53,282 nucleotides of DNA. Origin: a virus. Each line of letters starts with the position of its first letter. The stretch's first letter is position 1. Location: positions 1-53,282 of IMG/VR virus record IMGVR_UViG_3300021471_000002; one strand, 5' to 3'. The position numbers and the translations under genes were made by a program. Below are positions 25,910 through 44,249 of the stretch, one piece after another. Below the pieces are notes generated by a model. That model had not been told where the DNA came from. It did not search any database and saw only the letters and a program-made list of their open reading frames with translations.

Positions 25910-27181
25910 TTATAGCACTTTTCGCACCAGCCCGCCGGCTCGCAGTGTGCCGGCGCGTGCGGCTCTGGCGGCCGCGCGGTCAGCTGCCTCTCTGGTGGTT
26001 GTCAAAACATCCTGGAGCGCCGCCCGCAGATCGGTGAGCGCCACAGCGTCCGCAGGCGCGACACTACCCGGCCGTCCGGTCTGGCGCGGTGTCGCCGCTG
26101 CACGTTCCCGCAGCACCTCGAGCTGCCGGCGGAGGTCATCGTCTCCGACGGCGTCCTTCATTTTGAACATCTCGAGCAGGCTATTGACCCGCTCGGCGAC
26201 TTTAGGATTCAGGAAGCCGTTCTTATCCACCGAGGCGGCGATCTCGGTCGCCTCGGCGTATGCCCAGGCCCGCAGGTTGGTGAACAGCTCCTCGAATGGC
26301 GAGGCGATGTGCTGGAGTTGTTCGCGTGCGTGTTCCAGTTCGGCCTGGCGGATCGCCTCCATCTTGATCTCGGCCTCCGAACGCGCCAGGCGGGCGCGTT
26401 CATAGGCTTCCACCTCGGCGGCGTGGTGTTCTGCTGCCTGGCGGCGAAGGGCGGCGGCTCGTTCGCTCTCGGCCTCCAAGTCGGCGGCGGTCATCAAGAC
26501 GGCGGTTTTGTATTCCGCCGTCAGATTGGACTCGACGTCGCTGCGCGACGGGAACAGGGGGCGGGCGCGGTCGACCATCCACGCGATGAACTCATCGCGT
26601 GAGTCAAACGTCAGCGCTCCGCCTCGCAGGTTCAACACCAGCCGCCCGTCGTCCGCGTGGCCGTTCGCGTGGCCGTTGGCGGCGAGGATTGCGTCCCACG
26701 CCTCGGCGGCGCGTGCGGCCTCGGCGGCCAGATAGGCCTCGCGCCACTCGTCGAGATGCGCGAGGATGGTCTCCTTGAGCTCGTCCCACTCGGCCGCCAG
26801 CTCGTTCCAGCGGGCGACAAAGGCGTCGTAGGCGGCATAGTAGAGATAGCGATACGGGCGGAACCCCGCGACGTCGTGAGCGTACTTGTCGAGTACTCCC
26901 CGCATCCTGCGAGAGATGCTCTGCAGGCGGCCGTGCACCTCGCGGGGGATCAGATAGGTCTGCCCTGCAGTGCACGTCCTCCCGCGCACTGACGAGCGGG
27001 GGATTCCGAGTCCGGTCATGGTGGCGCGGCGTGAGAACATCGTCACGCCGTGCACATCGACGTCAATCAGTATCCCCTGTCGCCTGAGAACGCTCAATTC
27101 AAACCAGACGCGCTCAAAGTGCGTCTCGCCGGTGGCTGCAGCTGCGGCTGCAATCGGATCGTTCAATCTATGTTCGTCCAT
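25910..27181 (-). CDS. DUF3150 protein
   Basis: A 423-aa protein. ATG 27181 is preferred over an in-frame TTG at 27190 because GGAG precedes it at 9 nt. Residues ~95-165 read RMRGVLDKYAHDVAGFRPYR then a Tyr/Ala/Phe-rich helix and DELKETILAHLDEWREAYLA; this 'D-K-x-x-H-D-V-x-G-F-R-P-Y-R' pattern is typical of DUF3150. The remainder is coiled coil with an acidic-basic tail. From memory, DUF3150 genes of SXT-type mobile elements lie beside MoxR/CobS-like AAA ATPases; a Ycf46-like AAA ATPase is present here at 32360. It overlaps the preceding gene by 19 nt. Confidence 0.72.
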   Translation of the reverse strand: MDEHRLNDPIAAAAAATGETHFERVWFELSVLRRQGILIDVDVHGVTMFSRRATMTGLGIPRSSVRGRTCTAGQTYLIPREVHGRLQSISRRMRGVLDKYAHDVAGFRPYRYLYYAAYDAFVARWNELAAEWDELKETILAHLDEWREAYLAAEAARAAEAWDAILAANGHANGHADDGRLVLNLRGGALTFDSRDEFIAWMVDRARPLFPSRSDVESNLTAEYKTAVLMTAADLEAESERAAALRRQAAEHHAAEVEAYERARLARSEAEIKMEAIRQAELEHAREQLQHIASPFEELFTNLRAWAYAEATEIAASVDKNGFLNPKVAERVNSLLEMFKMKDAVGDDDLRRQLEVLRERAAATPRQTGRPGSVAPADAVALTDLRAALQDVLTTTREAADRAAARAARAGTLRAGGLVRKVL

Positions 27182-27486
27182 TTGTACCAACTCCGGGCGT
27201 TAGTGACCAGCACTCGGCCATGCTGGTCGATTAGTCCACGCGGGAATTTAACACACAAACCGTGTCCTGGCCACGCGACAGTGAAGCCGAGCGGCATGAA
27301 GTTCACCATCGTGACGATGTCGAAGGCGTTGAGCCGCGCGCCGGGTGCGAATATGCCGGCGGGATCACACTTGACGACAACCCGGCCGCGGGCGACATAG
27401 CCATCGGTTCTGCTGTTTCCCGGCGTGGCAGATGAGGTGGTTGAATGTACCCGGGGACCTCTTCTTTCGTCAATTTCTATACTCAT
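27163..27486 (-). CDS. Hypothetical protein coupled to the DEAH helicase
   Basis: A 107-aa protein. ATG 27486 overlaps the helicase TGA (ATGA) and AGGAG lies 8 nt upstream, so tight coupling is expected. The first 30 residues look disordered; the rest is beta-rich (YVARGRVVVKCDPAGIFAPG, FDIVTMVNFMPLGFTVAWPG) and ends NARSWYKWTNID. No known family. Its stoichiometric coupling to the helicase suggests a partner or regulator. Confidence 0.55.
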   Translation of the reverse strand: MSIEIDERRGPRVHSTTSSATPGNSRTDGYVARGRVVVKCDPAGIFAPGARLNAFDIVTMVNFMPLGFTVAWPGHGLCVKFPRGLIDQHGRVLVTNARSWYKWTNID

Positions 27487-29384
27487 CTCATCCACTCCTG
27501 CTCAATTGCCGTCACGTTTGACAGCAGTGTGAGCGGGCCGCGACGTGTGCGGATTTGCCACACCCTGTCGGCTACGATGTAGGCGGGCAACACACTGAGA
27601 AGAGCGGAGTTGCGCGCGATCTGGGCGTACGTGCAGGCGCCGGCGCGATGGTTTATGTACAAGTTGTAGTTTACACTACGCCACGTGTCCCTGGCTCCGG
27701 CCGCCAGTGCGCGGCGGACGACGGATGCCGGGGCGAGATCGGCGTCGTCATCGGCGTTGATGTTGGTGATCGCTGCGATCTGACGGAAAATGCTACGTGC
27801 CTCCAGCAACGATGAACGCCGCAGGAATTTGTCGCGGCAGAATTCACGTGAGAAGTCGGCGGTGGCCGCTGCGCGGTACGCAGCGAGGAGGGCAAAAGCA
27901 TCGCTGAGTTTCTCACGTGCCGCCGCGATGAACTCCGCATGTGCTTGATCCGCCTCTTGTTCCATTCCGCGCGGGCGGATGAGCACGTTTTGGACGCTCA
28001 TCAATGCAACTATGATAGCGACGGTGTGCTGGCAATCCAGACGTCTGGCTTCGATGAGCGTGCGGCTGTAGCGCGGGACGACAGGTATTTTCGACATCTG
28101 TCGGCCTATTTCCGTGATCACGCCACGCTCATCGAGTGCTCCGATAGCCGCCAGCTCTTGTTCGGCGTTCAGTATCCTTTCCTTGCCTGGGTGATCCAGG
28201 AAGGGGAGGGCGTTGACGTCGGTGATGCCGGCAGCTTTCAGCAGCAACACGACGTTGCTGAGGTTCATTCGTTTGATCTCCGGTACGCGGTAGCGCGGTA
28301 GCGCCGCGTGATCCTCGGCGCTCCACAGGCGGTAGCACACGCCATCGCCGGTGCGGCCGCAACGCCCGGCGCGCTGTGTCGCCGAGCTTTGGGAGATGGC
28401 ACGCAGCTTCAGCGTGCCGATGCCGTGCTCGTATTCGAAGACGCGCTCCGTGCCGGTGTCGATGACGTACCGGACGGACGGTATTGTGAGCGATGTTTCT
28501 GCTATGTTGGTCGCGACGACGATCTTCCGCCGCGACGGTGGCGCCGGGTTCAGGGCGCGGTCTCTATCATCGTCGCTCACAGCGGAGTGCAATGGCACGA
28601 TTATATCGTCTGGATTGCGGACTCGCAGACAAGTGATGCAATCGGCGATTTCACGTTTGCCTGGTTGGAATACCAGCACATCGCCGGGGGGGAGTTCGTC
28701 GATGATGTCGGCGACGGTCCGACCGGGCGCGTACACAATGTCGACGTGGTGCCGGCGACCGGCAGCGGGGATGGTTTTTGCAATACGCCGGACGAGCTCG
28801 GTGCGAATCGCGCCGGAGACGACTATCTGTTGTGATGAGCCGAGGTAGTCCTGGATCATAGATATATCCAGAGTAGCGCTCATCACGACGACCGGCGTGG
28901 TCGGGTGCTTCAATCTGACGAGTGCCAGGGCGACATCGCCGAAGAGCGAGCGTTCGTGAAACTCGTCAAACACGAACGTGCCGACATCGTCGGTTGCATT
29001 AGCGATCAGCATACGCATGAGCGTGCCATCTGTGACGTACAGTAGACGTGTTTCGTCACAGATGCGCTCATCGAACCGCACAGAATATCCCACCTCCTCG
29101 CCGACGCGCCCGCCGCGCTGTACCGCCACGTACTCGGCGACCGCCCGGGCTGTCAGGCGGCGCGGCTGTGTGACCACGACGCGCTGCTTGCCCGCCAGTC
29201 CCGCGTCCAGGATGGCGGGGGGGATGGTGGTTGTTTTGCCGGTCCCGGTGGGGGCGACGACCACGGCGCTACCGTCGCGCCTCAGGGCCTCGATGGTTGC
29301 CTTGACCATCGAGGCCGGAGCGACGGTGGCGCCGGTGGGGACGGCGACACTATCGACGAGGACGGCGCGAACCAGGCCCTTCAT
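27483..29384 (-). CDS. DEAH-box RNA/DNA helicase (HrpA/HrpB-like)
   Basis: A 633-aa SF2 helicase. The start at 29384 is chosen because it overlaps the upstream TGA (ATGA) and has GGGAG 10 nt earlier; an in-frame ATG at 29393 is too close to that site. Motifs in order: I APTGTGKTTTIPP, II VFDEFHERSLF (DEFH, a variant of DEAH), III VMSATLDIS, V VVATNIAETSLTIPSV, VI QRAGRCGRTGDGVCYRL. A helicase-associated winged-helix/ratchet region follows (LPFLDHPGKERILNAEQELA). HrpA/HrpB-type enzymes act on RNA, for example rescuing stalled ribosomes in bacteria; in a phage this gene is uncommon. The DEFH box is the noteworthy deviation. Confidence 0.9.
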   Translation of the reverse strand: MKGLVRAVLVDSVAVPTGATVAPASMVKATIEALRRDGSAVVVAPTGTGKTTTIPPAILDAGLAGKQRVVVTQPRRLTARAVAEYVAVQRGGRVGEEVGYSVRFDERICDETRLLYVTDGTLMRMLIANATDDVGTFVFDEFHERSLFGDVALALVRLKHPTTPVVVMSATLDISMIQDYLGSSQQIVVSGAIRTELVRRIAKTIPAAGRRHHVDIVYAPGRTVADIIDELPPGDVLVFQPGKREIADCITCLRVRNPDDIIVPLHSAVSDDDRDRALNPAPPSRRKIVVATNIAETSLTIPSVRYVIDTGTERVFEYEHGIGTLKLRAISQSSATQRAGRCGRTGDGVCYRLWSAEDHAALPRYRVPEIKRMNLSNVVLLLKAAGITDVNALPFLDHPGKERILNAEQELAAIGALDERGVITEIGRQMSKIPVVPRYSRTLIEARRLDCQHTVAIIVALMSVQNVLIRPRGMEQEADQAHAEFIAAAREKLSDAFALLAAYRAAATADFSREFCRDKFLRRSSLLEARSIFRQIAAITNINADDDADLAPASVVRRALAAGARDTWRSVNYNLYINHRAGACTYAQIARNSALLSVLPAYIVADRVWQIRTRRGPLTLLSNVTAIEQEWMR

Positions 29385-29716
29385 TTCGTCCATTCTCCCG
29401 CGAGGATGAGTCGCGCCAGCTCTTCCTCTTCGGCTCGCACCGCATCGGCCCGTGTGCGGTACGGGCCTAGCAGCCGGCCGTCGCACAGTGCGACGAGCCA
29501 GCGCCCGGGCCAGGTTCGCGTCCAGGCCGCGAGCGGATCGCCGGGGATGGCACGGATGAGGTGGTGTACGAGGCGGGCAGCGGGGTTTGCCGGGATAACG
29601 TGGCCCCCGCGTTGGATGGTCGTCACGTCGCCGATGCGACGCAGATTGTCGGCGTCCAGGTCGGCGTGCGCGACAACGGTGAGATGGTTGCCGTCCGGGG
29701 GGATGATGGCGATCAC
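29381..29716 (-). CDS. Hypothetical protein between DUF2997 and the helicase
   Basis: A 111-aa protein that starts at GTG 29716 with GGAGG 5 nt upstream and one base after the DUF2997 stop. Its end overlaps the helicase start by 4 nt. The N-terminus reads MIAIIPPDGNHLTVVAHADL; the C-terminus holds GRWLVALCDGRLLGPYRTRA and a helix of Ala/Glu. No family recognised. Membership in a tightly coupled block suggests it works with the helicase or with the DUF1257/DUF2997 pair. Confidence 0.5.
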   Translation of the reverse strand: MIAIIPPDGNHLTVVAHADLDADNLRRIGDVTTIQRGGHVIPANPAARLVHHLIRAIPGDPLAAWTRTWPGRWLVALCDGRLLGPYRTRADAVRAEEEELARLILAGEWTK

Positions 29717-29717
29717 G

Positions 29718-29912
29718 TTAGCCTCCGACTGTCACGCCCTCTTCGGAGGAGGCGGCGGTGAGGTAGAACTCGGCGGTGTGTTGTTCCTCATCCGCCACGC
29801 CGAGCTCGGCGGCGATGCGCTTCACCGCCTCTACGCAGGATGGACCGGTGTATCCTTCTGCCCGGACGGTCACTTTGCCGTCCGGGGCGATTTCGACAAT
29901 TATCTTCTTCAT
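29718..29912 (-). CDS. DUF2997 protein
   Basis: A 64-aa protein. ATG 29912 follows TTGGAGGTTAAA. The sequence KIIVEIAPDGKVTVRAEGYT then GPSCVEAVKRIAAELG fits DUF2997 closely (K-I-x-V-x-I-x-P-D-G ... G-F/Y-x-G-P-S-C). Family members are 60-70 aa and lie beside DUF1257 genes in cyanobacteria and other bacteria, as here, with a 1-nt gap. Function is unknown in any organism. Confidence 0.85.
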   Translation of the reverse strand: MKKIIVEIAPDGKVTVRAEGYTGPSCVEAVKRIAAELGVADEEQHTAEFYLTAASSEEGVTVGG

Positions 29913-29913
29913 T

Positions 29914-30270
29914 TTAACCTCCAACGACAACAACTACTGTCCCGTCGGCGCGTTGTTCGCGCCAGCAGGTCTGGCCGGCGCTGACGGCGGTCATCTCGAC
30001 GACCTGGGCAGTGTATTCCTGCACCAGGCGGTTGAGGTCGGCAGTGTCGCCCCACCGCCCGGCGTAGTTGTCGTACACTACCTCGCCATCATCACTGACG
30101 ACGACCGGGAAGCGCCATCCCGGGATCTTGACGGTGTACCCGCACGCCACGCCGGCGGGAAAATGCACAGCGTGGCGCTCGGCGCTGATCTCATACCCCA
30201 GCCGCTCACAGGCAGTGGCCAGAGCAGCCAGGTTGTGGACTTCAACAGATAACTTTACTATGTGGCTCAT
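29914..30270 (-). CDS. DUF1257 protein (Ycf35-like)
   Basis: A 118-aa protein that opens MSHIVKLSVEVHNLAALATA and closes with a Tyr/Val-rich strand and the phrase QRADGTVVVVVGG. The 'MSH-hydrophobic-K ... LxALxxACxxLGYE' opening is the DUF1257/Ycf35 signature, and the partner DUF2997 gene follows immediately. Ycf35 is conserved in plastids and cyanobacteria without a known role. AAGGAGTAAGTAAG precedes the ATG. A consensus promoter 35 nt upstream (30306-30334) heads this operon. Confidence 0.82.
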   Translation of the reverse strand: MSHIVKLSVEVHNLAALATACERLGYEISAERHAVHFPAGVACGYTVKIPGWRFPVVVSDDGEVVYDNYAGRWGDTADLNRLVQEYTAQVVEMTAVSAGQTCWREQRADGTVVVVVGG

Positions 30271-30305
30271 CTTACTTACTCCTTTCTTGCAATTTCCTTA
30301 CAGCC

Positions 30306-30334
30306 AATATACCACACTTGTACTACGCTGTCAA
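30306..30334 (-). promoter_or_regulatory. Leftward sigma-70 promoter before DUF1257
   Basis: On the minus strand TTGACA (30334-30329) and TATATT (30311-30306) are separated by 17 bp. The spacer ends GTGTGG directly before the -10 and contains GTAC, features shared with the promoters at 37455 and 50085. It overlaps the 3' end of the DnaC-like gene, so the DUF1257-to-DUF3150 block can be transcribed separately. Confidence 0.85.
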
Positions 30335-31141
30335 GCGCTTTATTGTTCTCATTCGATAATCCGATCCGCGCATGTCAACGAACAGGCGGCCATAGTCTGA
30401 CATTTGCCAGAGCCGGGAGAACGAGGCCGGCCCGATCCAGGACGTCATCTCGGTTGGTTGCTTGTTGGTCGTGACGACGAGCGGACCGTGTACATACCGA
30501 CCGTTGATGATCTGGTACATCTTTTCCTGGTGCCAGGCGGTGTTGGCGACGTGCTCCAGGCCCATTTCATCCATCACCAGCAGGTCGGCGGTGGCGAGGT
30601 CGCGTATGATGCTGTACTCGCTTGCGGCCTCGTCGGCGTAGCTGGCGCGTATGCGGGCCAGGAGATCGGGGACAGAGACGGCCACGATGTGCCACCCGGC
30701 GGCGGTCAGTTCGTTGGCGATGGCGCTGGCGAGGTGGGTCTTGCCGGTGCCGAAATTGCCCCACAGGATCAGGGCGACGGGAATGCCCACCCGCGCCTCG
30801 CGACAGAACGCCTGCGCTGCCCGCAGGCCGCGCTGCTGGTATGGCAGCGTGGTCTCGAATTCAGCGAACGAGGCGCGGGGGTTGAGTGTCGTCCTGGCGA
30901 TGGCATCCTCCCTGGCGGATCGGATAAACTCTTGTTCCATCCTGCGCCGGTGGCACTCAAGGCACGGGACGAACGACTCCGCACCATTCTCTTCCGTGAA
31001 TACCCAGATCGGTTCGCCACACTCCGGGCAGGTGTGCACGGACGGGCGGAATCTCTCACGCCCCGGGACCCGGAGCAGGGGGGCGTTCAACAATTGCCGC
31101 AGCGACTGCGGCTTGTTGTTGTTCGATCTTATTGTGCTCAT
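30323..31141 (-). CDS. DnaC-like helicase loader
   Basis: A 272-aa AAA+ protein. The N-terminal zinc finger reads HTCPECGEPIWVF ... SFVPCLECHRRR (C-x2-C ... C-x2-C). Then ILWGNFGTGKTHLASAIANE (Walker A), LLVMDEMGLEHVANTAWHQE (Walker B) and an arginine-finger region PASFSRLWQMSDYGRLF. This is the DnaC/IstB/lambda P-type loader that delivers the host replicative helicase to the origin. Its start lies inside the initiator gene (86-nt overlap), as is common for loader-initiator pairs. Confidence 0.9.
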   Translation of the reverse strand: MSTIRSNNNKPQSLRQLLNAPLLRVPGRERFRPSVHTCPECGEPIWVFTEENGAESFVPCLECHRRRMEQEFIRSAREDAIARTTLNPRASFAEFETTLPYQQRGLRAAQAFCREARVGIPVALILWGNFGTGKTHLASAIANELTAAGWHIVAVSVPDLLARIRASYADEAASEYSIIRDLATADLLVMDEMGLEHVANTAWHQEKMYQIINGRYVHGPLVVTTNKQPTEMTSWIGPASFSRLWQMSDYGRLFVDMRGSDYRMRTIKRLTA

Positions 31142-31970
31142 TGTGTGTTTTCTCCTCGCGTTGTTTCCTCAGCCAGACCCGGGCCCGGGCCCAGTTACGC
31201 GGGATGTCCCACGGGTCCGGGGGTTGGCCGCGGCGACCGCGCCAATCGGCGGCATACCAATAGCGGGCAAACTGAGGAATGTGGGCCGGGGTTTTGCCGG
31301 CGTCAAGCAGCTGTTTCGTGACGCGATTGAGTTTTCCTCTATCGGTCTGTGTGATCAGTGTCAGATCAATTTGACACAGTTTTGCGATGGCGGCAAACAT
31401 TTCACGCCGCGTGCTTTCATCATCGCCGGGGGTTGAAACAGTACTCTCTGTAGAAGTACTCTCTGTAGAAGTACTCTCTGATATAGAATGCAGGTTTTCT
31501 GCATTCTGACCGGCATCAGATTGCAGGTTTTCCGCATTCTGACCGGCATCAGATTGCAGGTTTTCCGCATTCTGACCGGCGTCAGATTGCGGGTTTTCCG
31601 CATTCTGAGGTGTGTTCTGGGGATGGTCGTTCCGAGAATAGTACGAATCTATGAGTGCTACCAGGTTCTCGGTGTTCACGCGGTAGTGCAATTTTCCGCG
31701 TGGTCCGGTACGCATTTCGTCCAGCACACCGAGCTGCCGGAGCTTCCTACGGGCACTCTCTTGCTCCGTTCGAGTGAGTGCCGTTTCTGACTCGATCTCG
31801 GACTGGGTTTTCCAGATGTACCCGTCCGAGCGGTTGCCTTTTCCTGTCCAGTACAGTAGCTGGCACAGGAATACAGCCGCCTTGACACCGCCGACGATAC
31901 GGGCGATGTCGGGGTGGTAGGCCACCGGCCTGTCGGAGAGTAGACTCAGTAGTGCCCGTCCGTCGCTCAT
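31056..31970 (-). CDS. Replication initiation protein with internal repeats
   Basis: A 304-aa protein. ATG 31970 is set by GGAGGTTTG. The N-terminal ~120 residues are a winged-helix domain of the kind found in phage replication initiators (VGGVKAAVFLCQLLYWTGKG, TKTQSEIESETALTRTEQES-like, KLRQLGVLDEM). A repeat region with four copies of an 11-residue unit (SDAGQNAENLQ) and a Ser/Thr/Glu run (STSTESTSTEST) separates it from a C-terminal DnaD-like helical domain. The DNA of the repeat region (31441-31608) is a candidate origin, as in lambda O. The winged-helix start plus loader neighbour give good confidence. Confidence 0.82.
   Translation of the reverse strand: MSDGRALLSLLSDRPVAYHPDIARIVGGVKAAVFLCQLLYWTGKGNRSDGYIWKTQSEIESETALTRTEQESARRKLRQLGVLDEMRTGPRGKLHYRVNTENLVALIDSYYSRNDHPQNTPQNAENPQSDAGQNAENLQSDAGQNAENLQSDAGQNAENLHSISESTSTESTSTESTVSTPGDDESTRREMFAAIAKLCQIDLTLITQTDRGKLNRVTKQLLDAGKTPAHIPQFARYWYAADWRGRRGQPPDPWDIPRNWARARVWLRKQREEKTHNEHNKIEQQQAAVAAAIVERPPAPGPGA
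31441..31480. repeat. 15-bp direct repeats inside the initiator gene
   Basis: GTACTCTCTGTAGAA is present twice in tandem from 31441 and 31456, followed by a third partial copy GTACTCTCTG at 31471. They encode the STSTESTST segment. Together with the 33-bp repeats next to them they form an iteron-like cluster in the initiator gene. Confidence 0.85.
31489..31608. repeat. 33-bp tandem repeats (iteron-like, candidate origin)
   Basis: Units begin at 31489, 31522, 31555 and 31588, exactly 33 bp apart, each starting TGCAGGTTTT or TGCGGGTTTT and containing GCATTCTGACCGGC. Three are full and the fourth is partial. Only two or three bases differ between units. They code for the QNAENLQSDAG repeat, so protein repeats and DNA iterons coincide. 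Confidence 0.85.
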
Positions 31971-31984
31971 CAACAAACCTCCTG

Positions 31985-32097
31985 AAAACAAAAGTGCCCG
32001 ACTCTCTGAGCGAGGGCGTGACGGTGGCCTACCCCAAGAAAGGCCTTTGCCCACGCCCAGAGAGTCGGGCGCTTTTTTACCTTTTTCACCTTGGGGT
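31985..32097 (-). promoter_or_regulatory. Hairpin leader of the replication operon (attenuator or structured RNA)
   Basis: In the leftward transcript a perfect 13-bp stem joins 32070-32058 (GCCCGACTCTCTG) with 32008-31996, and an inner 7-bp stem joins 32058-32052 with 32020-32014. A T-rich run (TTTTGTTTT, 31993-31985) follows, then the ribosome binding site and ATG 31970. The apical loop contains CTTGGGGT (32038-32031), complementary over 8 bases to ACCCCAAG just upstream of the stem (32097-32090), allowing a pseudoknot or an alternative anti-terminator. The + strand also has TTTTTT after the stem (32073-32078), so it may terminate both ways. It lies between a promoter and the initiator gene. 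Confidence 0.75.
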
Positions 32098-32126
32098 TCG
32101 TCGGCCCGTCACAGCCTGATGCTGTC

Positions 32127-32156
32127 ATTATATCACATTCCACCTTCAATTGTCAA
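32127..32156 (-). promoter_or_regulatory. Leftward sigma-70 promoter of the replication operon
   Basis: Minus-strand TTGACA (32156-32151), an 18-bp spacer and a perfect TATAAT (32132-32127). Predicted start near 32120 gives a leader of about 150 nt that includes the long hairpin at 31985-32097. It overlaps the last codons of the Cys-rich gene. Confidence 0.85.
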
Positions 32157-32363
32157 CCCCGGTCCCGGTGGTGGCTCCGGTGGCGGTGGCGCGTACATGG
32201 AGCATTGGCCCTGGCGGGGTTCCTGGAGCTCGGGCAGTAATTCGCCCGTGATTGCGCAGATGATGTAGCCCTCGCCCGGCGGTTCGCCTGGCTCCCCCGC
32301 GTCCCGGCAGGCCGGGACGCGGTGGGCAAACGCGCAGTCAGCGCATGCGGGGATCTTTATCAT
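32133..32363 (-). CDS. Small Cys-rich protein
   Basis: A 76-aa protein. ATG 32363 overlaps the TGA of the AAA ATPase (ATGA), with GGAGGGTAATCAG upstream. It reads IPACADCAFAHRVPACRDAG then IICAITGELLPELQE and QGQCSMY, giving at least five cysteines suited to a zinc or iron-sulfur site, and ends in a proline-rich tail. Coupled directly to the Ycf46-like ATPase, so a partner role is possible. No family recognised. Confidence 0.6.
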   Translation of the reverse strand: MIKIPACADCAFAHRVPACRDAGEPGEPPGEGYIICAITGELLPELQEPRQGQCSMYAPPPPEPPPGPGLTIEGGM

Positions 32364-33802
32364 CTGATTACCCTCCTGACCATTCTTCCGCCCTGGGCCT
32401 CCTCGGCCTGTTGGGCGGACTGCTGTTGTGACGCCGGCACGCACCGGCCGGCGGCCCAGTCGCGCAGGGCGTCGATTTGCTCGCGCATCGTGCGCGTGAG
32501 CGGTACGACGAACTGCGCCGCCTCTGCCGCCGTGGTGTTGTGTATGGCGGCGAGGCGGTAGGCGGTTGCTATCTCGGCGCCCGTCCAGCCGCGCTCATCC
32601 GGGCGCGGCTCGAGGGGGACGTCAAACACGCGGGCGTAAAGTGCTGCGATCTCCGCCCGCTCATCCACGCCGGGAACATCGAAGAAGAACAGGGCGTCCC
32701 ATCGCTCGGCGCGGGTGAACTCGGGGGGCAGCTTGGTTATGTCATTGCAGGTTGCTATGACATAAATGCCGCTGCCGGCCGGTCGGTCGTTCAACCAGGT
32801 GAGGAAGGCCTCACCGACGCGGGCGGCGGTGCCACCGTCGGAGCGGTGGCTGGACTGCACGCCGGACAATCCTTTCTCGATTTCGTCGATGATAAGGATG
32901 GCCGGCGCCATCGCCTCGACTGTTCTCAGAGCAGCGTGCATTTTCTGCTCACTCTCTCCGACGAGTGAGCCGAACACGCGGGAGAACTCCAGCTTGATCG
33001 CCGGGACGCCGACCTCGTTTCCGAGCGCCTGTGCGACCATCGTTTTCCCCACCCCTGGGACGCCGAGGAGTAATGCTCCTCGGGCGAGCTCGTGGCCACA
33101 CGTGGCACGCAGGAATTTCTTGACGTTATCGAGGCCGCCGATGTCATCGAACGTCCAGGACGTCCTGCTCCACTCCAGGACGGAGCTTTTGCGCAGCAGG
33201 CGTTCCTTCTGCGCTGCGATCTCGTCGGCGACTATCTCGCCGTGCCGGCTGATCGAGAGCGCGATACTGTTCACGAACTCGTATGCGCTCAGTCCGCGGC
33301 CGATGCGGCCCAGGGCAGCCGCCTCATCCTCGGTGATGGGGACGCCGTTGGCGACGGCGTTGGCGGCCGCGATGTCGGCCAGTTCCTCGGCGGTCGGGAG
33401 GTCGTGGTCAATGACCACTACGTATCGCTCGATCTCCGCCGGTACGGTCACGCCCGGTGGGGCGATGATGACCAGGCGGAGCATCGCCGAACTCCAGTTC
33501 GCCGCACCGTCGAGCAGGTGCTGAATGACGGACGGCGATTTGAGGTACAGGTGATAGTGTACAGCGATTAGCACGGTCGGCGGATCGGCTTCATTCAGCG
33601 CCCGGCCAACGGCGGTGGGATCGCCGTTGGCCTGTCCGCTTTCTCCGCGCTGCCAGGCCTCGAACGTGCGGATGCCGGCCACGCTGTCCCAGACCAGGAC
33701 GGTGGCCTCCCCCGCCCATTGGACCGCGACGTCGTTGACGGCGCGGAGCGGCTCGTGGGTAGCGACTACGACGATGGGAAAGGCGCGGATTTCATCTTTC
33801 AT
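32360..33802 (-). CDS. AAA ATPase, Ycf46-like
   Basis: A 480-aa protein. ATG 33802 follows GAGGAGTCATAAG. The N-terminal half has the Ycf46 layout: IVVVATHEPLRAVNDVAVQW (EE-type opening), VLVWDSVAGIRTFEAWQRGE, VLIAVHYHLYLKSPSVIQHL, then VVVIDHDLPTAEELADI. A single AAA module follows: Walker A LLLGVPGVGKTMVAQALGNE, Walker B AILIIDEIEKGLSG, sensor-1 VIATCNDITKLPPEF, and a C-terminal helical lid. Ycf46 is conserved in cyanobacteria and plastids with unclear function. Finding it with DUF1257 (Ycf35) and DUF2997 in one phage operon region is notable. Confidence 0.82.
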   Translation of the reverse strand: MKDEIRAFPIVVVATHEPLRAVNDVAVQWAGEATVLVWDSVAGIRTFEAWQRGESGQANGDPTAVGRALNEADPPTVLIAVHYHLYLKSPSVIQHLLDGAANWSSAMLRLVIIAPPGVTVPAEIERYVVVIDHDLPTAEELADIAAANAVANGVPITEDEAAALGRIGRGLSAYEFVNSIALSISRHGEIVADEIAAQKERLLRKSSVLEWSRTSWTFDDIGGLDNVKKFLRATCGHELARGALLLGVPGVGKTMVAQALGNEVGVPAIKLEFSRVFGSLVGESEQKMHAALRTVEAMAPAILIIDEIEKGLSGVQSSHRSDGGTAARVGEAFLTWLNDRPAGSGIYVIATCNDITKLPPEFTRAERWDALFFFDVPGVDERAEIAALYARVFDVPLEPRPDERGWTGAEIATAYRLAAIHNTTAAEAAQFVVPLTRTMREQIDALRDWAAGRCVPASQQQSAQQAEEAQGGRMVRRVIR

Positions 33803-33803
33803 C

Positions 33804-34286
33804 TTATGACTCCTCGATGGTGTACACCAGGTAGGTGTACCACCCGCCACCGTCCTCTGTGTGCGAGGAGACGATGATTGGATCGTCCTCGGTCGGCAGG
33901 CCCGGCTCGTCCGGCTTCTTGTAGCCGGCCGGGCATTCATCGAGCGGGAGCAGGTCATCATACACGCGCTCGATGACGACGGCGCGGCGGCGGAGGCGCG
34001 GGTTGCGGATGGATTCTACGGGGCGGATTACGAGCTGGTAATGCTCGAAGTCCACACCATCCTCGGCGTCCATGTGTCCTGTGTGGCGCCGGAAGTGCGC
34101 TACACAGGGGGTAGTGATGATGTCATAGAATCCGAATCCGGTGGGGATACGAATGGCGAACGGGAGGCGGTAGGCGCTGTTGCTGGCGAGATGTACCGCG
34201 TCCATACGACCGCCATAGTTGGCGCGGTGCTCGATCTCCGCGCAGTTTTCAAGATACAGGTTTGTGATTTCAAAGTATACGGACAT
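33804..34286 (-). CDS. Hypothetical protein upstream of the AAA ATPase
   Basis: A 160-aa protein starting at ATG 34286 with AAGGAG 9 nt upstream; one base separates its stop from the ATPase start. It is rich in Tyr/His and beta-like (YFEITNLYLENCAEIEHRAN, RLPFAIRIPTGFGFYDIITT, TPCVAHFRRHTGHMDAEDGV) and closes GGGWYTYLVYTIEES. No family recognised. Its coupling suggests a substrate or adaptor of the ATPase. Confidence 0.55.
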   Translation of the reverse strand: MSVYFEITNLYLENCAEIEHRANYGGRMDAVHLASNSAYRLPFAIRIPTGFGFYDIITTPCVAHFRRHTGHMDAEDGVDFEHYQLVIRPVESIRNPRLRRRAVVIERVYDDLLPLDECPAGYKKPDEPGLPTEDDPIIVSSHTEDGGGWYTYLVYTIEES

Positions 34287-38449: not shown

Positions 38450-39760
38450 CTACAATTCCCCGCGCAGCCGATCCACTGCCTGGCAGACCAGCGCGAAGCG
38501 GCGGCCACCTTCCGCTTCTCCGAGGGCGCGGCAAGCGGAGCGGTATGACCCGCCCGGGTCCCAGCCGGCCTTGCGCAGCCGGTCGATCATCGTCGTGACC
38601 TCGTCAACCGGGGGCGTGGCGGGTGGAAGTGTCGAGGGTGGCATTGTTATTGCCGGGCTAGGCTGCTCCGTCAGCTCATCCGCCACCGCCGCTTGCGGTA
38701 TGACAGCCGGTAAGCCATACAGTTCCTCCATCACCTCCGCGATCTCATCGTGGGAGATGTAGGCGCTCTGGAAGTGGATCACGCGTCCTTTTGCCACGGC
38801 CAGAAAGTCTCCCTGTCCCGTCAACCGCTCGGCTCCCGTGCCGCTCCAGCCGGTCGCGGTGCGGGCGTCCTCGATGCTGGTGACGCGCCCGACAAGCCGC
38901 ACCGGGAAGTTTGCCTTGACCAGCGGGCCCAGCACGGCGGCGGTGGGTTTCTGCGTTGCCGCGACGATGTGGATGCCGGCCTCGCGGCCGCGCTGTGTCA
39001 GTCGCGTTAGCGCCTGTTGTGCCGGTTTCCCGCTCACCATCAGCAGATCCGCCAGCTCATCGATCACGACTACTACAGGCGGCGGTGTAGAGCTTCTGTT
39101 ATGACCTCGACCTCGTCTTTCCATCAGTCGCACGAGGCTGAGGAGCGCTTCAGTTGCCTCGCTCGCATCATGGATGACCGGACGGACCAGGTGGGGCAAT
39201 CCTGCGAAGATGCTGAAGGCGTGTCCCTTGGGGTCTATGAGCACCAGCGCCAGCTCGTGGCCTTCCCCCGCGCGGGGAGAGGAGAAGGGAGTATTGGCCA
39301 CCGCCAGGCTCAGGATCATCGCCTGGAGGAGCACCGTCTTCCCCGACCCGGTGGTGCCGGCCGTCAGGACGTGAGCCACGCTGGGAGATGGCAATCGGAT
39401 AAGTAGCGGTGAGCCGTCCTCGGCCAGGCCGAGGACGGCGGTGGCCGGCGGGACGACATCCAGGTTGATCTGGCGAAGCAGAGGCAGCAGGCGCACCGGC
39501 TGCGGGTCGGTGCGAGGGATTTCGATGGCTACAGTAGCTCCCTGCCGGGAGACACGACAATCTGGTGCGTCGAGGGCGGATGCGAGCTCCTCGTGCAGGC
39601 CTTTGATCCTGGATATTCTGGCGCCTACGGCGGGCAGCACCTCGAAGCGCACCCAGCGTGGCGTGACCGTTCCGCCGGTCACACGTGCGCGCACTCTGTG
39701 CGATGATAGCACTGCCTCGATTCGGTCTGCCATAAACTCCAACTCGCGTTTCGTAGTCAT
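38450..39760 (-). CDS. FtsK/SpoIIIE-like DNA translocase
   Basis: A 436-aa protein. Residues ~30-105 resemble the FtsK beta domain (PAVGARISRIKGLHEELASA). The motor follows: Walker A HVLTAGTTGSGKTVLLQAMI, the segment ELALVLIDPKGHAFSIFAGL, Walker B PVVVVIDELADLLMVSGKPA, and IHIVAATQKPTAAVLGPLVK. The C-terminal 60 residues look like a small winged-helix (gamma-like) DNA-binding domain (MIDRLRKAGWDPGGSYRSA). FtsK pumps dsDNA. In phages without an integrase or partition genes its role is unclear; plasmid-type maintenance or DNA transfer are options. Confidence 0.88.
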   Translation of the reverse strand: MTTKRELEFMADRIEAVLSSHRVRARVTGGTVTPRWVRFEVLPAVGARISRIKGLHEELASALDAPDCRVSRQGATVAIEIPRTDPQPVRLLPLLRQINLDVVPPATAVLGLAEDGSPLLIRLPSPSVAHVLTAGTTGSGKTVLLQAMILSLAVANTPFSSPRAGEGHELALVLIDPKGHAFSIFAGLPHLVRPVIHDASEATEALLSLVRLMERRGRGHNRSSTPPPVVVVIDELADLLMVSGKPAQQALTRLTQRGREAGIHIVAATQKPTAAVLGPLVKANFPVRLVGRVTSIEDARTATGWSGTGAERLTGQGDFLAVAKGRVIHFQSAYISHDEIAEVMEELYGLPAVIPQAAVADELTEQPSPAITMPPSTLPPATPPVDEVTTMIDRLRKAGWDPGGSYRSACRALGEAEGGRRFALVCQAVDRLRGEL

Positions 39761-41351: not shown

Positions 41352-41397
41352 TCTGTCACCTCCTATTGCTGATATAGTGTAAGTGTGCTACGCGCGT

Positions 41398-41427
41398 ATT
41401 GTACCATATTAACACCGCACTTGTCAA
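41398..41427 (-). promoter_or_regulatory. Leftward sigma-70 promoter of the early operon
   Basis: Minus-strand TTGACA (41427-41422), 18 bp and TACAAT (41403-41398). It drives the Phd-like gene and probably the following early genes. Its -35 lies only 45 bp from the -35 of a rightward promoter (41472), so the two are divergent and could share regulators. Confidence 0.82.
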
Positions 41428-41471
41428 GTAAGTCCCTCGCGGCTTTCTCTCAAGACCCGGGCGGTTATGTG

Positions 41472-41501
41472 TTGACACGGCACGGTGTGTTGTTGTATAA
41501 T
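41472..41501 (+). promoter_or_regulatory. Rightward sigma-70 promoter with leaderless start
   Basis: TTGACA (41472-41477), 18 bp and TATAAT (41496-41501). Transcription should start near 41508 and the methyltransferase ATG is at 41511, so the mRNA would have essentially no leader and no Shine-Dalgarno site. Confidence 0.87.
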
Positions 41502-41510
41502 AATGACACC

Positions 41511-42824
41511 ATGATCGAGCTGCGGGACAGAATCATCGATCTGCGGCGCATTGACAGTGCGGAGTTGCAAGACAACGATGGCAACTGGCGCACCCACCCA
41601 CTGGCGCAGCGCGAGGCGCTGGCGGCTGTGCTGGACGAGGTAGGGATTGTCAACGCGCTCATTGCATACGAAAGTGAGCGGCAGGGAGGCCTGACGCTGA
41701 TAGACGGCCACCTCCGGGCGAATGAACACGCCGGAGTGTGGCCGGTTTTGGTTTTGGACCTCACCGACGACGAAGCGGACGTGGTACTGGCGACTCTGGA
41801 TCCGCTGGCAGGGATGGCGCGAACCATACCGGGGGCGTTGGCGTCGTTGGTGGATGGCATCACCGACGTCTCTCCCGACGTCCAGGCGACGTTGGACGCT
41901 ATTGCCAGGCAGGCGGACGGTGACATAGCGCACGCGATGGACGGTGACGGCGAGGTTGTCGAAGAGGGCGAGGCACGGGATCGTTTGGTGGCGGACTGGG
42001 AGATCGAGCGGGGCGCGGTGTGGTCTATCAGCTCGGCCTCGGTACGCGGCGGCGCGCATCGGGTAATGTGTGGCTCATCGCTAGAGCGCAGGGATCTCGA
42101 TGTGTTGTTCGACGGTCGCGTGGCCGATATGGTGTTTACCGATCCGCCCTACGGCATCCGGTTCGAGCCGGAGGATAGGAAACTCCGTGCTCGCGGCCCG
42201 CGTCACCGGTTCGCCGGCGGCATCATCGGTGACGATCAAGAGTTCGAGCAAAAAAAGTGGCTGTCGGCTGTTGATTCTTACTACGCCGGCGCGATATACA
42301 TCTGCGCTGCTAGAGACAGCTACCCGGAGCTGTGGACCTGGCTGCGGATCAGGTATGGCCGTCCGCCGACGGTCATCGTCTGGGTGAAAGAGATGTTCAC
42401 GATGACCCGGCGCGATTACCATCACCAGCATGAATTCTTGTTCTACGGTGAGAGCGGTGATGCTGGTCAGGCGTTGAACGACGAGATGATGGACGCCGGC
42501 GGGGGGATGGTGTTGTACTCCTGGAATGCCCGCCGCCGGTGGCTGGCCGGGCGAGGGGAGACGGATTTGTGGTTCATCAGGCGGGTGTCGTTGCGTGAGT
42601 ATGTACATCCGACACAGAAGCCGGTCGAGTTGGTCGAGCGAGCGATCACGAACTCCTGTCAGCGGGGAGGCGTGGTCGCCGATTTTTTTGGCGGGTCGGG
42701 GACAACGATGGTGGCGGCGGAGCGGACCGGGCGATTATCGTTGACGATGGAGCTGGATCCGCGTTTTGTCGCCGTCACGCTGAACCGCGCCCGCAGCCTG
42801 GGGCTGCGGGTCGAGCGGCTGTGA
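41511..42824 (+). CDS. ParB-like domain fused to DNA methyltransferase (N6-adenine type)
   Basis: A 437-aa protein; the ATG at 41511 follows directly on a consensus promoter. Residues ~10-105 form a ParB/Srx-like domain (GNWRTHPLAQREALAAVLDE, LIDGHLRANEHAG, DLTDDEADVVLATLDPLAGM). The methylase has motif IV TDPPYGI (211-214 DPPY) and the AdoMet motif FFGGSGTTMVAAER near the end, the order of beta-class enzymes; DPPY points to adenine-N6. No restriction enzyme is present, so it probably protects phage DNA. The ParB domain is shared with the next gene (over half identical), a tandem duplication. Confidence 0.88.
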   Translation: MIELRDRIIDLRRIDSAELQDNDGNWRTHPLAQREALAAVLDEVGIVNALIAYESERQGGLTLIDGHLRANEHAGVWPVLVLDLTDDEADVVLATLDPLAGMARTIPGALASLVDGITDVSPDVQATLDAIARQADGDIAHAMDGDGEVVEEGEARDRLVADWEIERGAVWSISSASVRGGAHRVMCGSSLERRDLDVLFDGRVADMVFTDPPYGIRFEPEDRKLRARGPRHRFAGGIIGDDQEFEQKKWLSAVDSYYAGAIYICAARDSYPELWTWLRIRYGRPPTVIVWVKEMFTMTRRDYHHQHEFLFYGESGDAGQALNDEMMDAGGGMVLYSWNARRRWLAGRGETDLWFIRRVSLREYVHPTQKPVELVERAITNSCQRGGVVADFFGGSGTTMVAAERTGRLSLTMELDPRFVAVTLNRARSLGLRVERL

Positions 42825-42839
42825 AATTCAGGAGGTAAT

Positions 42840-44249
42840 GTGACAGAGAAGCGAAAGACACAGCACGGCTACCGTGATCGTATTGTCGAACTGGTACGTG
42901 TACACTCCTCCGATCTGCAGGACAACGAGGGTAACTGGCGCGTGCATCCCCTGGCGCAGCGCGAGGCGCTGGCCGGGATTCTGGAGCAAGTCGGGATCGC
43001 CGATGCTCTGCTGGCGTACAGATCGCAGCGCGCCGGCGGGGCTCTGGTCGTAATTGACGGTCATCTGCGCCGTGAATTCGGCGGTACCTGGCCGGTGTTG
43101 ATCCTGGACGTCACCGACGACGAGGCCGATCTGCTGTTGACCACGCTGGATCCGCTGGCATCACTGGCGCAGATGGACGGGGATAAGATGCGCGAGCTAA
43201 CGGAGCGTGTAGCACAATCGGCGGACGCGCGACTGCGGACGATGCTGGCCGATCTCGGTACAGAGGCCGAGTTGGCGGCATTTCGTGCCGCCGCCGCTGT
43301 GGAGAGTGGTAGCACGGACGACGCAGAGGTGCCGGACTACGTCGAGGCGGCGGATACGTTGCTGGAGAAGTGGGAGGTGCGATACGGCGACGTATGGAGT
43401 GCGTGCGACGGTGAGCATTTCATCATCTGCGGCGACTGCCGCGAGGCGGCGACGTGGGAGCGGCTGCTGGGAGCAGCGGGACTCGACAGTGTCAATGGTG
43501 TGATCACCTCCCCGCCATACGCCGAACAGCGGAAGAAGCAGTACGGCGGCGTGCCAGAAGGCGAGTATGTGGACTGGTTCGAGGCAGTTCAACGGAATAT
43601 CCGCACGTGGCTGGCCGACGACGGTAGTTTTTTTCTGAACATCAAGCCGCATGCGGCACGAGGTCAGCGCGTGCTGTACGTGTTCGACCTGGTGCTGGCG
43701 ATGGTGCGGAGGTGGGACTGGATGTTTGTCGACGAGTTGATCTGGTACAAAATCGGTCTCCCCGGCGGCTGGCGTAACCGATTGCGCAACTGCTTCGAGC
43801 CGATCTATCATTTCTCGAAGCAGCGGCAGATACGATTCTACCCGCGCAACGTGGGGTCGGAGGGCGACGTGCCCCGCTATCGCGTTCCGGGTAACTGGAA
43901 TCCGAAGACAGGGAACGCCGGTATACCGCCGGCGAATCGCCGTGAGCGTGGAGTGGCGCGGCCGGGCAACGTGATCCAGGTGCATGTGAACCAGGAGGCG
44001 CTGCCGCACGCTGCCGTGTTCCCGGTGGCGCTGGTCGAGTTTTTCGTCAAACTGGCCTCGGAAGATGGCAATGTGTGGCTGGATCCGTTCTTGGGCAGCG
44101 GCACGACAATCGTGGCGGCGCACCGCCTGGGTCGGCGGGGGCTGGGGATCGAGCATCTGGCGAGGCACGTTGCCGTGTCGCTGGAACGGATGGCTGCGCT
44201 GGGCATGGAGCCGCGGCTGGAGCGGCGGGAGGAGAAGGAGGAGGAGTAG
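42840..44249 (+). CDS. ParB-like domain fused to DNA methyltransferase (N4-cytosine type)
   Basis: A 469-aa protein starting at GTG behind AGGAGGTAAT. The N-terminus repeats the ParB-like domain of the previous gene (NWRVHPLAQREALAGILEQV, VVIDGHLRREFGGTWPVLIL). The catalytic motif is TSPPY (223-227), typical of N4-cytosine enzymes, and DPFLGSGTTIVAAHRLGRRG binds AdoMet. So the duplicated pair diverged to two chemistries. It overlaps no neighbour and lies 2 nt before the terminase small gene. Confidence 0.88.
   Translation: MTEKRKTQHGYRDRIVELVRVHSSDLQDNEGNWRVHPLAQREALAGILEQVGIADALLAYRSQRAGGALVVIDGHLRREFGGTWPVLILDVTDDEADLLLTTLDPLASLAQMDGDKMRELTERVAQSADARLRTMLADLGTEAELAAFRAAAAVESGSTDDAEVPDYVEAADTLLEKWEVRYGDVWSACDGEHFIICGDCREAATWERLLGAAGLDSVNGVITSPPYAEQRKKQYGGVPEGEYVDWFEAVQRNIRTWLADDGSFFLNIKPHAARGQRVLYVFDLVLAMVRRWDWMFVDELIWYKIGLPGGWRNRLRNCFEPIYHFSKQRQIRFYPRNVGSEGDVPRYRVPGNWNPKTGNAGIPPANRRERGVARPGNVIQVHVNQEALPHAAVFPVALVEFFVKLASEDGNVWLDPFLGSGTTIVAAHRLGRRGLGIEHLARHVAVSLERMAALGMEPRLERREEKEEE

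What the first reader, a model, noticed from the sequence alone, without database searches (positions are those of the whole stretch)
29381..33802. Ycf46 AAA ATPase, Ycf35 (DUF1257) and DUF2997 together in a phage
Three families that are conserved side by side or in the same organisms in cyanobacteria and plastids, all without a known function, occur close together here, with unknown genes coupled to each (160 aa and 76 aa at the ATPase, 111 aa at DUF2997). Sequence shows the family signatures; the genomic partnership in phages is from general knowledge. A phage carrying the set suggests it is a self-contained system acting on something in the infected cell, perhaps protein remodelling by the AAA ring.
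Basis: partly seen in the sequence, partly recalled or inferred. Interest (0 to 1): 0.78.

Follow-up and report, generated by a model that had tools for sequence, protein, structure and literature searches.

The report
Phage Ycf46-DUF1257-DUF2997-DUF3150 gene set
This phage carries a small linked gene set, a p97-like protein-remodelling motor and its conserved companion proteins, that many unrelated phages and most sampled photosynthetic-type cyanobacterial genomes also keep together, so a mystery of chloroplast-type genes could now be studied in ordinary phages.

Summary
The window is a tailed phage (IMG/VR record, 53 kb). It encodes a Ycf46-type AAA ATPase (32360-33802, minus), a DUF2997 protein (Pfam 2e-13) and a 118-aa protein that Pfam misses but profile comparison identifies as DUF1257 (Ycf35). 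The linkage is far beyond chance. Of 92 loci fetched by the ATPase, 51 also have DUF1257 and 45 DUF2997; of 54 fetched by DUF1257, 53 have DUF2997 and 51 the ATPase; of 13 fetched by DUF3150, all 13 have all four. Cultured phages of Rhizobium, Agrobacterium, Aeromonas, Pseudomonas and Rhodobacter carry the trio; cyanobacterial chromosomes show the same partnership. The ATPase model is a p97-like double AAA module with a nucleotide-dead first ring and an intact second. On plasmids DUF3150 accompanies a MoxR-type ATPase and a VWA protein, suggesting that DUF1257-DUF2997 fill the adaptor role of VWA. Best explanation: a protein-remodelling machine with a dedicated adaptor pair; substrate unknown, perhaps a replication or partition protein. 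The 160-aa, 76-aa and 111-aa neighbours are not conserved partners. No paper found describes this set in phages.

The parts
32360..33802 (-). Ycf46-type tandem AAA ATPase, 480 aa (ATG at 33802): D1 without Walker A, D2 with intact Walker A/B, sensor 1 and arginine fingers
29914..30270 (-). DUF1257 (Ycf35-like) protein, 118 aa; missed by Pfam, found by profile-profile comparison
29718..29912 (-). DUF2997 protein, 64 aa (ATG at 29912, directly after the DUF1257 stop), with the family-wide invariant Cys
25910..27181 (-).
29381..29716 (-). 111-aa protein, overlaps the next gene; not a conserved partner (one relative, in L077)
33804..34286 (-). 160-aa protein directly upstream of the ATPase (stop codon and ATPase start 1 base apart); no relatives found
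32133..32363 (-). 76-aa Cys-rich protein whose ATG overlaps the ATPase stop (ATGA); no relatives found
31056..31979 (-). replication initiation O-like protein, interleaved
   Evidence: phrog_9773 1.7e-40
30323..31141 (-). DnaC-like helicase loader, directly upstream of DUF1257
   Evidence: phrog_50 7e-52
27483..29393 (-). DEAH-box helicase (HA2 domains), between the 111-aa gene and DUF3150

Best explanation
The genes encode one ATP-driven protein-remodelling machine. The ATPase forms a p97/Cdc48-like hexamer of stacked AAA rings: the first ring has lost its nucleotide site and serves as scaffold and docking surface, the second hydrolyses ATP and pulls on a polypeptide through a hydrophobic pore loop. 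DUF1257 and DUF2997 are its dedicated small adaptors, recognising the client or holding it at the pore; DUF2997 contributes a strictly conserved cysteine. DUF3150 is the mobile-element-specific partner, an arm or client handler, which in other elements is served by a MoxR-type ATPase with a VWA adaptor. In the phage the machine most likely takes apart or activates a protein complex of genome replication or partition. Shown: sequence families, linkage in many elements, tandem AAA fold (predicted), intact D2 and dead D1 motifs. Inferred: hexamer, complex formation, adaptor role, client.
For: Linkage anchored on each part: ATPase (51 with DUF1257, 45 with DUF2997, 33 with DUF3150, of 92 loci; all of the 20 nearest have at least one), DUF1257 (53/54 DUF2997, 51/54 ATPase) and DUF3150 (13/13 all four). 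17 of 26 ATPase clusters at 45% identity carry both DUFs, in ten gene orders, so the set survives rearrangement. In Cyanobacteriota all 70 sampled genomes with DUF2997 also have the ATPase, against 4 of 46 without. The ATPase model (pLDDT 91) aligns with p97 residues 215-763 over 426 residues, Z 25.2, rmsd 5.3. D1 Walker A in 0 of 142; D2 Lys, Asp-Glu and Asn invariant. DUF2997 Cys 113/113. DUF3150 beside a MoxR/CbbQ-type AAA and a VWA-type protein on plasmids. NorQ-NorD precedent for an AAA ring with an adaptor in its pore (PMC13036017). Replication context.
Against: No complex was predicted or measured. 33 viral or phage ATPase loci, most with full flanks, show none of the partners, and the Streptococcus satellite phage Javan368 has the ATPase alone, so the ATPase can work without them or with others. 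DUF3150 is absent from the Rhizobium-type phages and from the cyanobacterial loci examined, so it is not core. In the window the ATPase lies about 2 kb from the DUF pair and 5 kb from DUF3150. The replication link is gene neighbourhood only.
Confidence: 0.58

Rival explanations
1. Cofactor-insertion chaperone: like NorQ-NorD, the ATPase bends a carrier so that a metal or iron-sulfur cofactor is inserted into a target enzyme; the DUF2997 cysteine handles the metal or sulfur.
For: Invariant Cys in DUF2997 (113/113); in Synechocystis the DUF2997-ycf35 pair is clustered with ferredoxin fed7 (PMC4284462); ycf35 and ycf46 losses in red algae track habitat together with a haem oxygenase gene, argued to reflect iron (PMC5940233); a phage PAPS reductase near the set in L077; NorQD precedent (PMC13036017).
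Against: A single conserved Cys is no metal site; DUF1257 has no conserved Cys and no conserved His beyond the MSH start; no shared metalloenzyme seen next to the set in phages.
Confidence: 0.17
2. Anti-defence or host-takeover machine: the ring extracts or unfolds a host defence or regulatory protein, with DUF1257-DUF2997 as target-recognition adaptors.
For: Widely carried by phages and plasmids of unrelated hosts; one cyanobacterial NACHT-type gene carries a C-terminal DUF1257 domain, as a decoy would.
Against: No PADLOC family beyond the generic AAA part; also a conserved chromosomal gene set in cyanobacteria; the NACHT fusion was seen once among 194 genomes and is interrupted by a stop codon.
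Confidence: 0.13
3. Auxiliary metabolic genes taken from a cyanobacterial host that boost host photosynthesis or carbon uptake.
For: Ycf46 inactivation lowers EcaB activity in Synechocystis (Jiang 2015, as cited in PMC7496141).
Against: The window ATPase lies in a deep viral/plasmid subclade, not inside cyanobacteria; named phages with the set infect Rhizobium, Agrobacterium, Aeromonas, Pseudomonas and Rhodobacter.
Confidence: 0.03
4. Chance or hitch-hiking neighbourhood of early phage genes without a functional link.
For: Early phage regions hold many small genes; some ATPase loci lack partners; one related group of large phages dominates the DUF1257-anchored set.
Against: Retained through ten gene orders, in 17 divergent ATPase clusters, and independently in cyanobacterial genomes.
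Confidence: 0.03

Closest known systems
Ycf46 (Slr0374) and its DUF1257 neighbour, and Ycf35-DUF2997-Fed7, in cyanobacteria and algal plastids
   Same: Same ATPase type over D1 and D2, same DUF1257 and DUF2997 families; in cyanobacteria a DUF1257 gene lies just downstream of ycf46, and some genomes have all three clustered
   Different: Phage ATPase forms its own viral/plasmid subclade; DUF3150 added; non-photosynthetic hosts; interleaved with replication genes
Rhizobium phage RHph_I4 EVC24_084-088 and relatives (L338C, Aeromonas HJ05, Agrobacterium JP1, Rhodobacter RcTiptonus, Pseudomonas Pa BHU-17)
   Same: ATPase, DUF1257, DUF2997 in one run; next to replication genes in RHph_I4 and L338C
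   Different: A conserved ~200-240-aa gene (X) between ATPase and DUF1257 and a ~120-aa gene (Y) further on; no DUF3150; no function given
Candidatus Manganitrophus plasmids CP114559/CP114562
   Same: ATPase-DUF1257-DUF2997-DUF3150 in a row; ATPase in the window's subclade, 36% identical
   Different: Plasmid, standard-length DUF3150, no interleaved replication genes
p97/Cdc48, Rix7/NVL, Drg1 tandem AAA unfoldases
   Same: Predicted D1-D2 fold (Z 25.2, 426 residues); intact D2
   Different: D1 has no Walker A; no p97 N-domain; different partners; the Ycf46-type sequence clade is separate from CDC48 and FtsH
MoxR/CbbQ-type AAA with VWA (NorQ-NorD, CbbQ-CbbO, ternary conflict systems) and the plasmid AAA-DUF3150-VWA sets
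   Same: AAA ring with a dedicated adaptor; shared DUF3150 partner
   Different: Other AAA clade; no VWA here; DUF1257-DUF2997 instead

Membership tests
Ycf46-type AAA ATPase | Degenerate N-terminal AAA domain (no Walker A) followed by an intact AAA domain | tested here: met
   Model and alignment: D1 Walker A 0/142; D2 Lys, Asp-Glu, Asn invariant
Ycf46-type AAA ATPase | Groups with cyanobacterial Ycf46 rather than FtsH or CDC48 | tested here: met
   72-row clade, SH-aLRT 100; the window is in a viral/plasmid subclade of 15 rows. It is Ycf46-type, not a copy of cyanobacterial Ycf46
DUF1257 (PF06868, Ycf35) | Match above the Pfam cut-off | tested here: not met
   No match reported at E up to 1; some other phage and plasmid members of these loci also miss it. 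Because of this I call it DUF1257-like, divergent
DUF1257 (PF06868, Ycf35) | Profile-level homology over the full length | tested here: met
   hhalign probability 97%, E 1e-10 over 118 residues; 32-39% identity to relatives
DUF2997 (PF11211) | Match above the Pfam cut-off; Gly/Cys signature | tested here: met
   50.3 bits against 24.1; invariant G and C
DUF3150 (PF11348) | Match above the Pfam cut-off | tested here: not met
   No match; nearest relative L049 only E 0.037. Called DUF3150-like
DUF3150 (PF11348) | Profile-level homology to members over most of the length | tested here: met
   hhalign 97.8%, E 1e-12, 277 columns; HMM of 31 others 3.8e-13; a member of that set, L020, passes the Pfam cut-off (2e-24)
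p97/Cdc48 | Two intact ATPase domains and an N-domain for cofactors | tested here: not met
   D1 lacks Walker A; the D1-D2 alignment starts at model residue 1, leaving no N-domain. Works like, not member
MoxR-VWA systems | MoxR-clade AAA plus VWA protein | tested here: not met
   Best Pfam match is PF00004, AAA_5 and AAA_3 weak and below cut-off; no VWA match among the window proteins scanned. Analogy through DUF3150 only
Functional AAA-adaptor complex | Physical association of ATPase, DUF1257 and DUF2997 | not testable with these tools
   No multimer prediction or experiment available
Known anti-phage defence systems (PADLOC) | Match to a system-specific protein model | tested here: not met
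   Only weak AAA-domain matches to IetA/TRIP13 for the ATPase; none for DUF1257, DUF2997 or DUF3150

The most novel reading that the evidence does not exclude
Ycf46-DUF1257-DUF2997 is an ancient, mobile, self-contained AAA remodelling module that is not specific to photosynthesis. In mobile elements it is paired with DUF3150, a partner shared with MoxR-VWA machines, so two unrelated AAA machineries appear to be interchangeable drivers of one unknown DUF3150-dependent process in phage and plasmid replication or maintenance.
Probability: 0.4. Interest if true: 0.85.

Novelty: new variant of a known kind. Interest (0 to 1): 0.68.

Why it matters
Ycf46, Ycf35 and DUF2997 are conserved in cyanobacteria, the first two also in algal plastids, and have no agreed function; the one phenotype found concerns carbon use in a cyanobacterium. 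Finding the same set retained in phages of non-photosynthetic hosts means the core activity cannot be photosynthesis itself, and it gives small, culturable systems (Rhizobium, Aeromonas and Rhodobacter phages) in which the genes can be deleted one at a time. The shared DUF3150 partner ties it to a MoxR-VWA set carried by hundreds of conjugative plasmids, also unexplained.

Tried and rejected
Single-protein pattern scans of viral contigs with the window's ATPase and DUF2997 found nothing; tblastn of DUF2997 and the 118-aa protein against 50,697 phage records found nothing, so profile methods were needed. The 111-aa protein looked by eye like the ~120-aa Y protein after DUF2997 in other phages; hhalign rejects that. 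The 160-aa protein is not the X protein. A first guess that X is DUF3150 was wrong: X has no Pfam match. Stenotrophomonas DLP5 seemed to share the order, but its neighbours are not DUF1257/DUF2997. DUF1257 fold search: no Foldseek match better than E 0.07; VIA-align Z at most 6.1 to TBP/KA1-like folds among others, too weak to use. No PDB relatives by sequence for DUF1257, DUF2997 or DUF3150. Apparent fusions L204 and L205 are long upstream reading frames, not fusions. Literature: no paper held mentions DUF3150; DUF2997/DUF1257 occur only in cyanobacterial or soil contexts; none of the three papers holding both 'ycf46' and 'phage' appears to concern a phage set.
Full report
WHAT IS THERE. The window is a tailed-phage contig with terminase, portal, major head and tape-measure genes; the tools identify it as a 53,282-base virus record. 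On the minus strand, in one co-directional run, lie a 160-aa gene, the AAA ATPase (32360-33802), a 76-aa Cys-rich gene, a replication-initiator-like gene, a DnaC-like helicase loader, the 118-aa gene (29914-30270), DUF2997 (29718-29912), a 111-aa gene, a DEAH helicase, and after one more small gene a 423-aa gene (25910-27181). Neighbouring starts and stops overlap or nearly touch: the 160-aa stop and ATPase start are one base apart, the ATPase stop overlaps the next ATG, and the DUF2997 start follows the DUF1257 stop directly.

FAMILY CHECKS. DUF2997 is clear (PF11211, 2.1e-13). The 118-aa protein is not called by Pfam DUF1257, but hhalign against six DUF1257s from phages and a plasmid (the Pfam hits include members of that set above the cut-off) gives 97% probability and E 1e-10 over its whole length, and it is 32-39% identical to a group of viral DUF1257s. 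The 423-aa protein is not called by Pfam either, but a profile of 31 DUF3150 proteins finds it at 3.8e-13 and hhalign aligns 277 columns at E 1e-12. The ATPase has only generic AAA matches in Pfam, but full-length homology to phrog_8638. Reversed-sequence controls of the DUF1257 and DUF2997 HMMs gave no hit, and the best DUF3150 hit was E 0.15.

LINKAGE. A scan of IMG/VR with the ATPase alignment alone returned 80 loci. With 12 loci from phages and plasmids this makes 92 loci besides the window, of which 51 have DUF1257, 45 DUF2997 and 33 DUF3150 on the same strand (the counts there, 52, 46 and 34, include the window). All of the 20 loci nearest to the window have at least one. The 12 were picked from annotated collections by hand, so the 80 IMG/VR loci are the cleaner sample. 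Scans from the other side agree: 13 loci fetched by DUF3150 all have the order ATPase-DUF1257-DUF2997-DUF3150, and of 54 fetched by window-type DUF1257, 53 have DUF2997 and 51 the ATPase, the exceptions lying on short contigs or near contig ends. Some contigs were fetched by more than one of these scans. Many of the 54 belong to one group of phages, several with contigs near 200 kb, so I clustered: 218 loci with the ATPase fall into 26 clusters at 45% identity, 17 of which contain DUF1257+DUF2997, in ten gene orders. Rhizobium phage RHph_I4 is annotated with all three families; Aeromonas HJ05, Agrobacterium JP1, Rhodobacter RcTiptonus and Pseudomonas Pa BHU-17 have a similar layout without names.

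CYANOBACTERIA. In 116 Cyanobacteriota genomes DUF1257 occurs in 60, DUF2997 in 70 and the Ycf46-type ATPase in 74; all 70 with DUF2997 have the ATPase, and only 4 of the 46 others do. Relatedness inflates the p-value; within the 56 genomes without Pfam DUF1257 the split is still 12 both, 0 DUF2997 only, 3 ATPase only, 41 neither. A DUF1257 match lies within 1 kb downstream of a ycf46-type gene in at least 50 genomes (positions copied by hand from the tables, not every genome was included, and in G009, G015 and G023 the two are on different contigs). Three-gene clusters occur in several genomes (L206, L208, L210, L211, L213). The cluster known from the literature is DUF2997-ycf35-fed7 (PMC4284462).

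ATPASE. AlphaFold2 gives pLDDT 91, pTM 0.85. The whole chain aligns with p97 D1-D2 (residues 215-763; Z 25.2, 426 residues, rmsd 5.3). D1 has no Walker A in any of 142 full-length relatives; in D2 the P-loop Lys, Walker B Asp-Glu and sensor Asn are invariant and the arginine-finger positions are conserved. A tree separates 72 Ycf46-type sequences from FtsH and CDC48 (SH-aLRT 100) and puts the window in a viral/plasmid subclade of 15 (100). So it is Ycf46-type but not a recent capture from cyanobacteria. The hexamer is inferred from the family.

SMALL PARTNERS. DUF2997 has an invariant Cys in a G-(F/Y)-x-G-x-x-C motif (113 of 113). DUF1257 folds confidently in the model (pLDDT 89) but gives no convincing match to solved structures. 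Its most conserved features are the MSH start, a Q-x-Y in the long helix and a Gly after it.

DUF3150. On plasmids it sits with a MoxR/CbbQ-type AAA (AAA_5 with CbbQ_C) and a CobT-type VWA protein in Allochromatium and Halomonas, the latter also with ssb, RecT and a YqaJ recombinase, and with an AAA-type protein and a DUF2201 VWA-like protein in Cupriavidus. These have no Ycf46-type ATPase, DUF1257 or DUF2997 among the proteins tested. Its relatives are on 850 plasmid records, 814 predicted conjugative. Hence the inference that DUF1257-DUF2997 stand where VWA stands in the other machine. In NorQ-NorD the VWA protein inserts a finger into the AAA pore and a linker is pulled (PMC13036017), a model for what the small pair may do.

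FUNCTION. Best explanation: protein remodelling by a single active AAA ring with two adaptors, in mobile elements with DUF3150. Neighbours in several elements are replication, recombination or partition genes: O-like and DnaC-like here, DnaB (and DNA polymerase I in L338C) in the Rhizobium phages, ParB and a sliding clamp in L038, SSB/RecT with the plasmid DUF3150. This suggests, but does not show, a replication or partition client.

LIMITS. No complex was predicted; 33 viral or phage loci have the ATPase without partners; the searches cap results, so the counts are samples, not censuses; sub-threshold families rest on my own HMMs, checked by hhalign and reversed-sequence controls.

Noticed in passing
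L203:2533-4272 (+), G096:C71: A NACHT/STAND-like protein region (an in-frame stop upstream separates the P-loop part) ends in a DUF1257 domain most like the one next to cyanobacterial ycf46, up to 79% identical; one case in 194 genomes. Possibly a decoy or sensor.
   Followed up: partly
L118:6000-8717 (+): Ycf46-type ATPase of a Desmonostoc MAG carries a ~350-aa insert with Hint and LAGLIDADG-like matches near the nucleotide-binding region: a probable intein.
   Followed up: yes
L002 (Streptococcus satellite phage Javan368) 11467-13044: Ycf46-type ATPase without any of the partners in a 14-kb satellite phage.
   Followed up: partly
L005:6561-7199 and 8138-8509, and equivalents in L003, L006, L009, L010, L013: Two further proteins travel with the set in Rhizobium-type phages: X (~200-240 aa, basic C-terminus) and Y (~120 aa, phrog_38408 in several); no known function.
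   Followed up: partly
L078:5825-6778 and 21 other loci: A different protein family clusters across 22 of the loci, directly after the ATPase in L078, a locus without DUF1257/DUF2997; perhaps an alternative partner.
   Followed up: partly
window 41385-44249 (+): Two consecutive DNA methyltransferase-like genes upstream of the terminase.
   Followed up: no
window 38450-39760 (-): FtsK/SpoIIIE-like translocase encoded by the phage.
   Followed up: no
L183-L194 (small 1.8-2.0 Mb Cyanobacteriota genomes): ATPase and DUF2997 are neighbours, with a gene in some of them that matches DUF1257 only weakly; could be chromosomal sets or prophages.
   Followed up: partly
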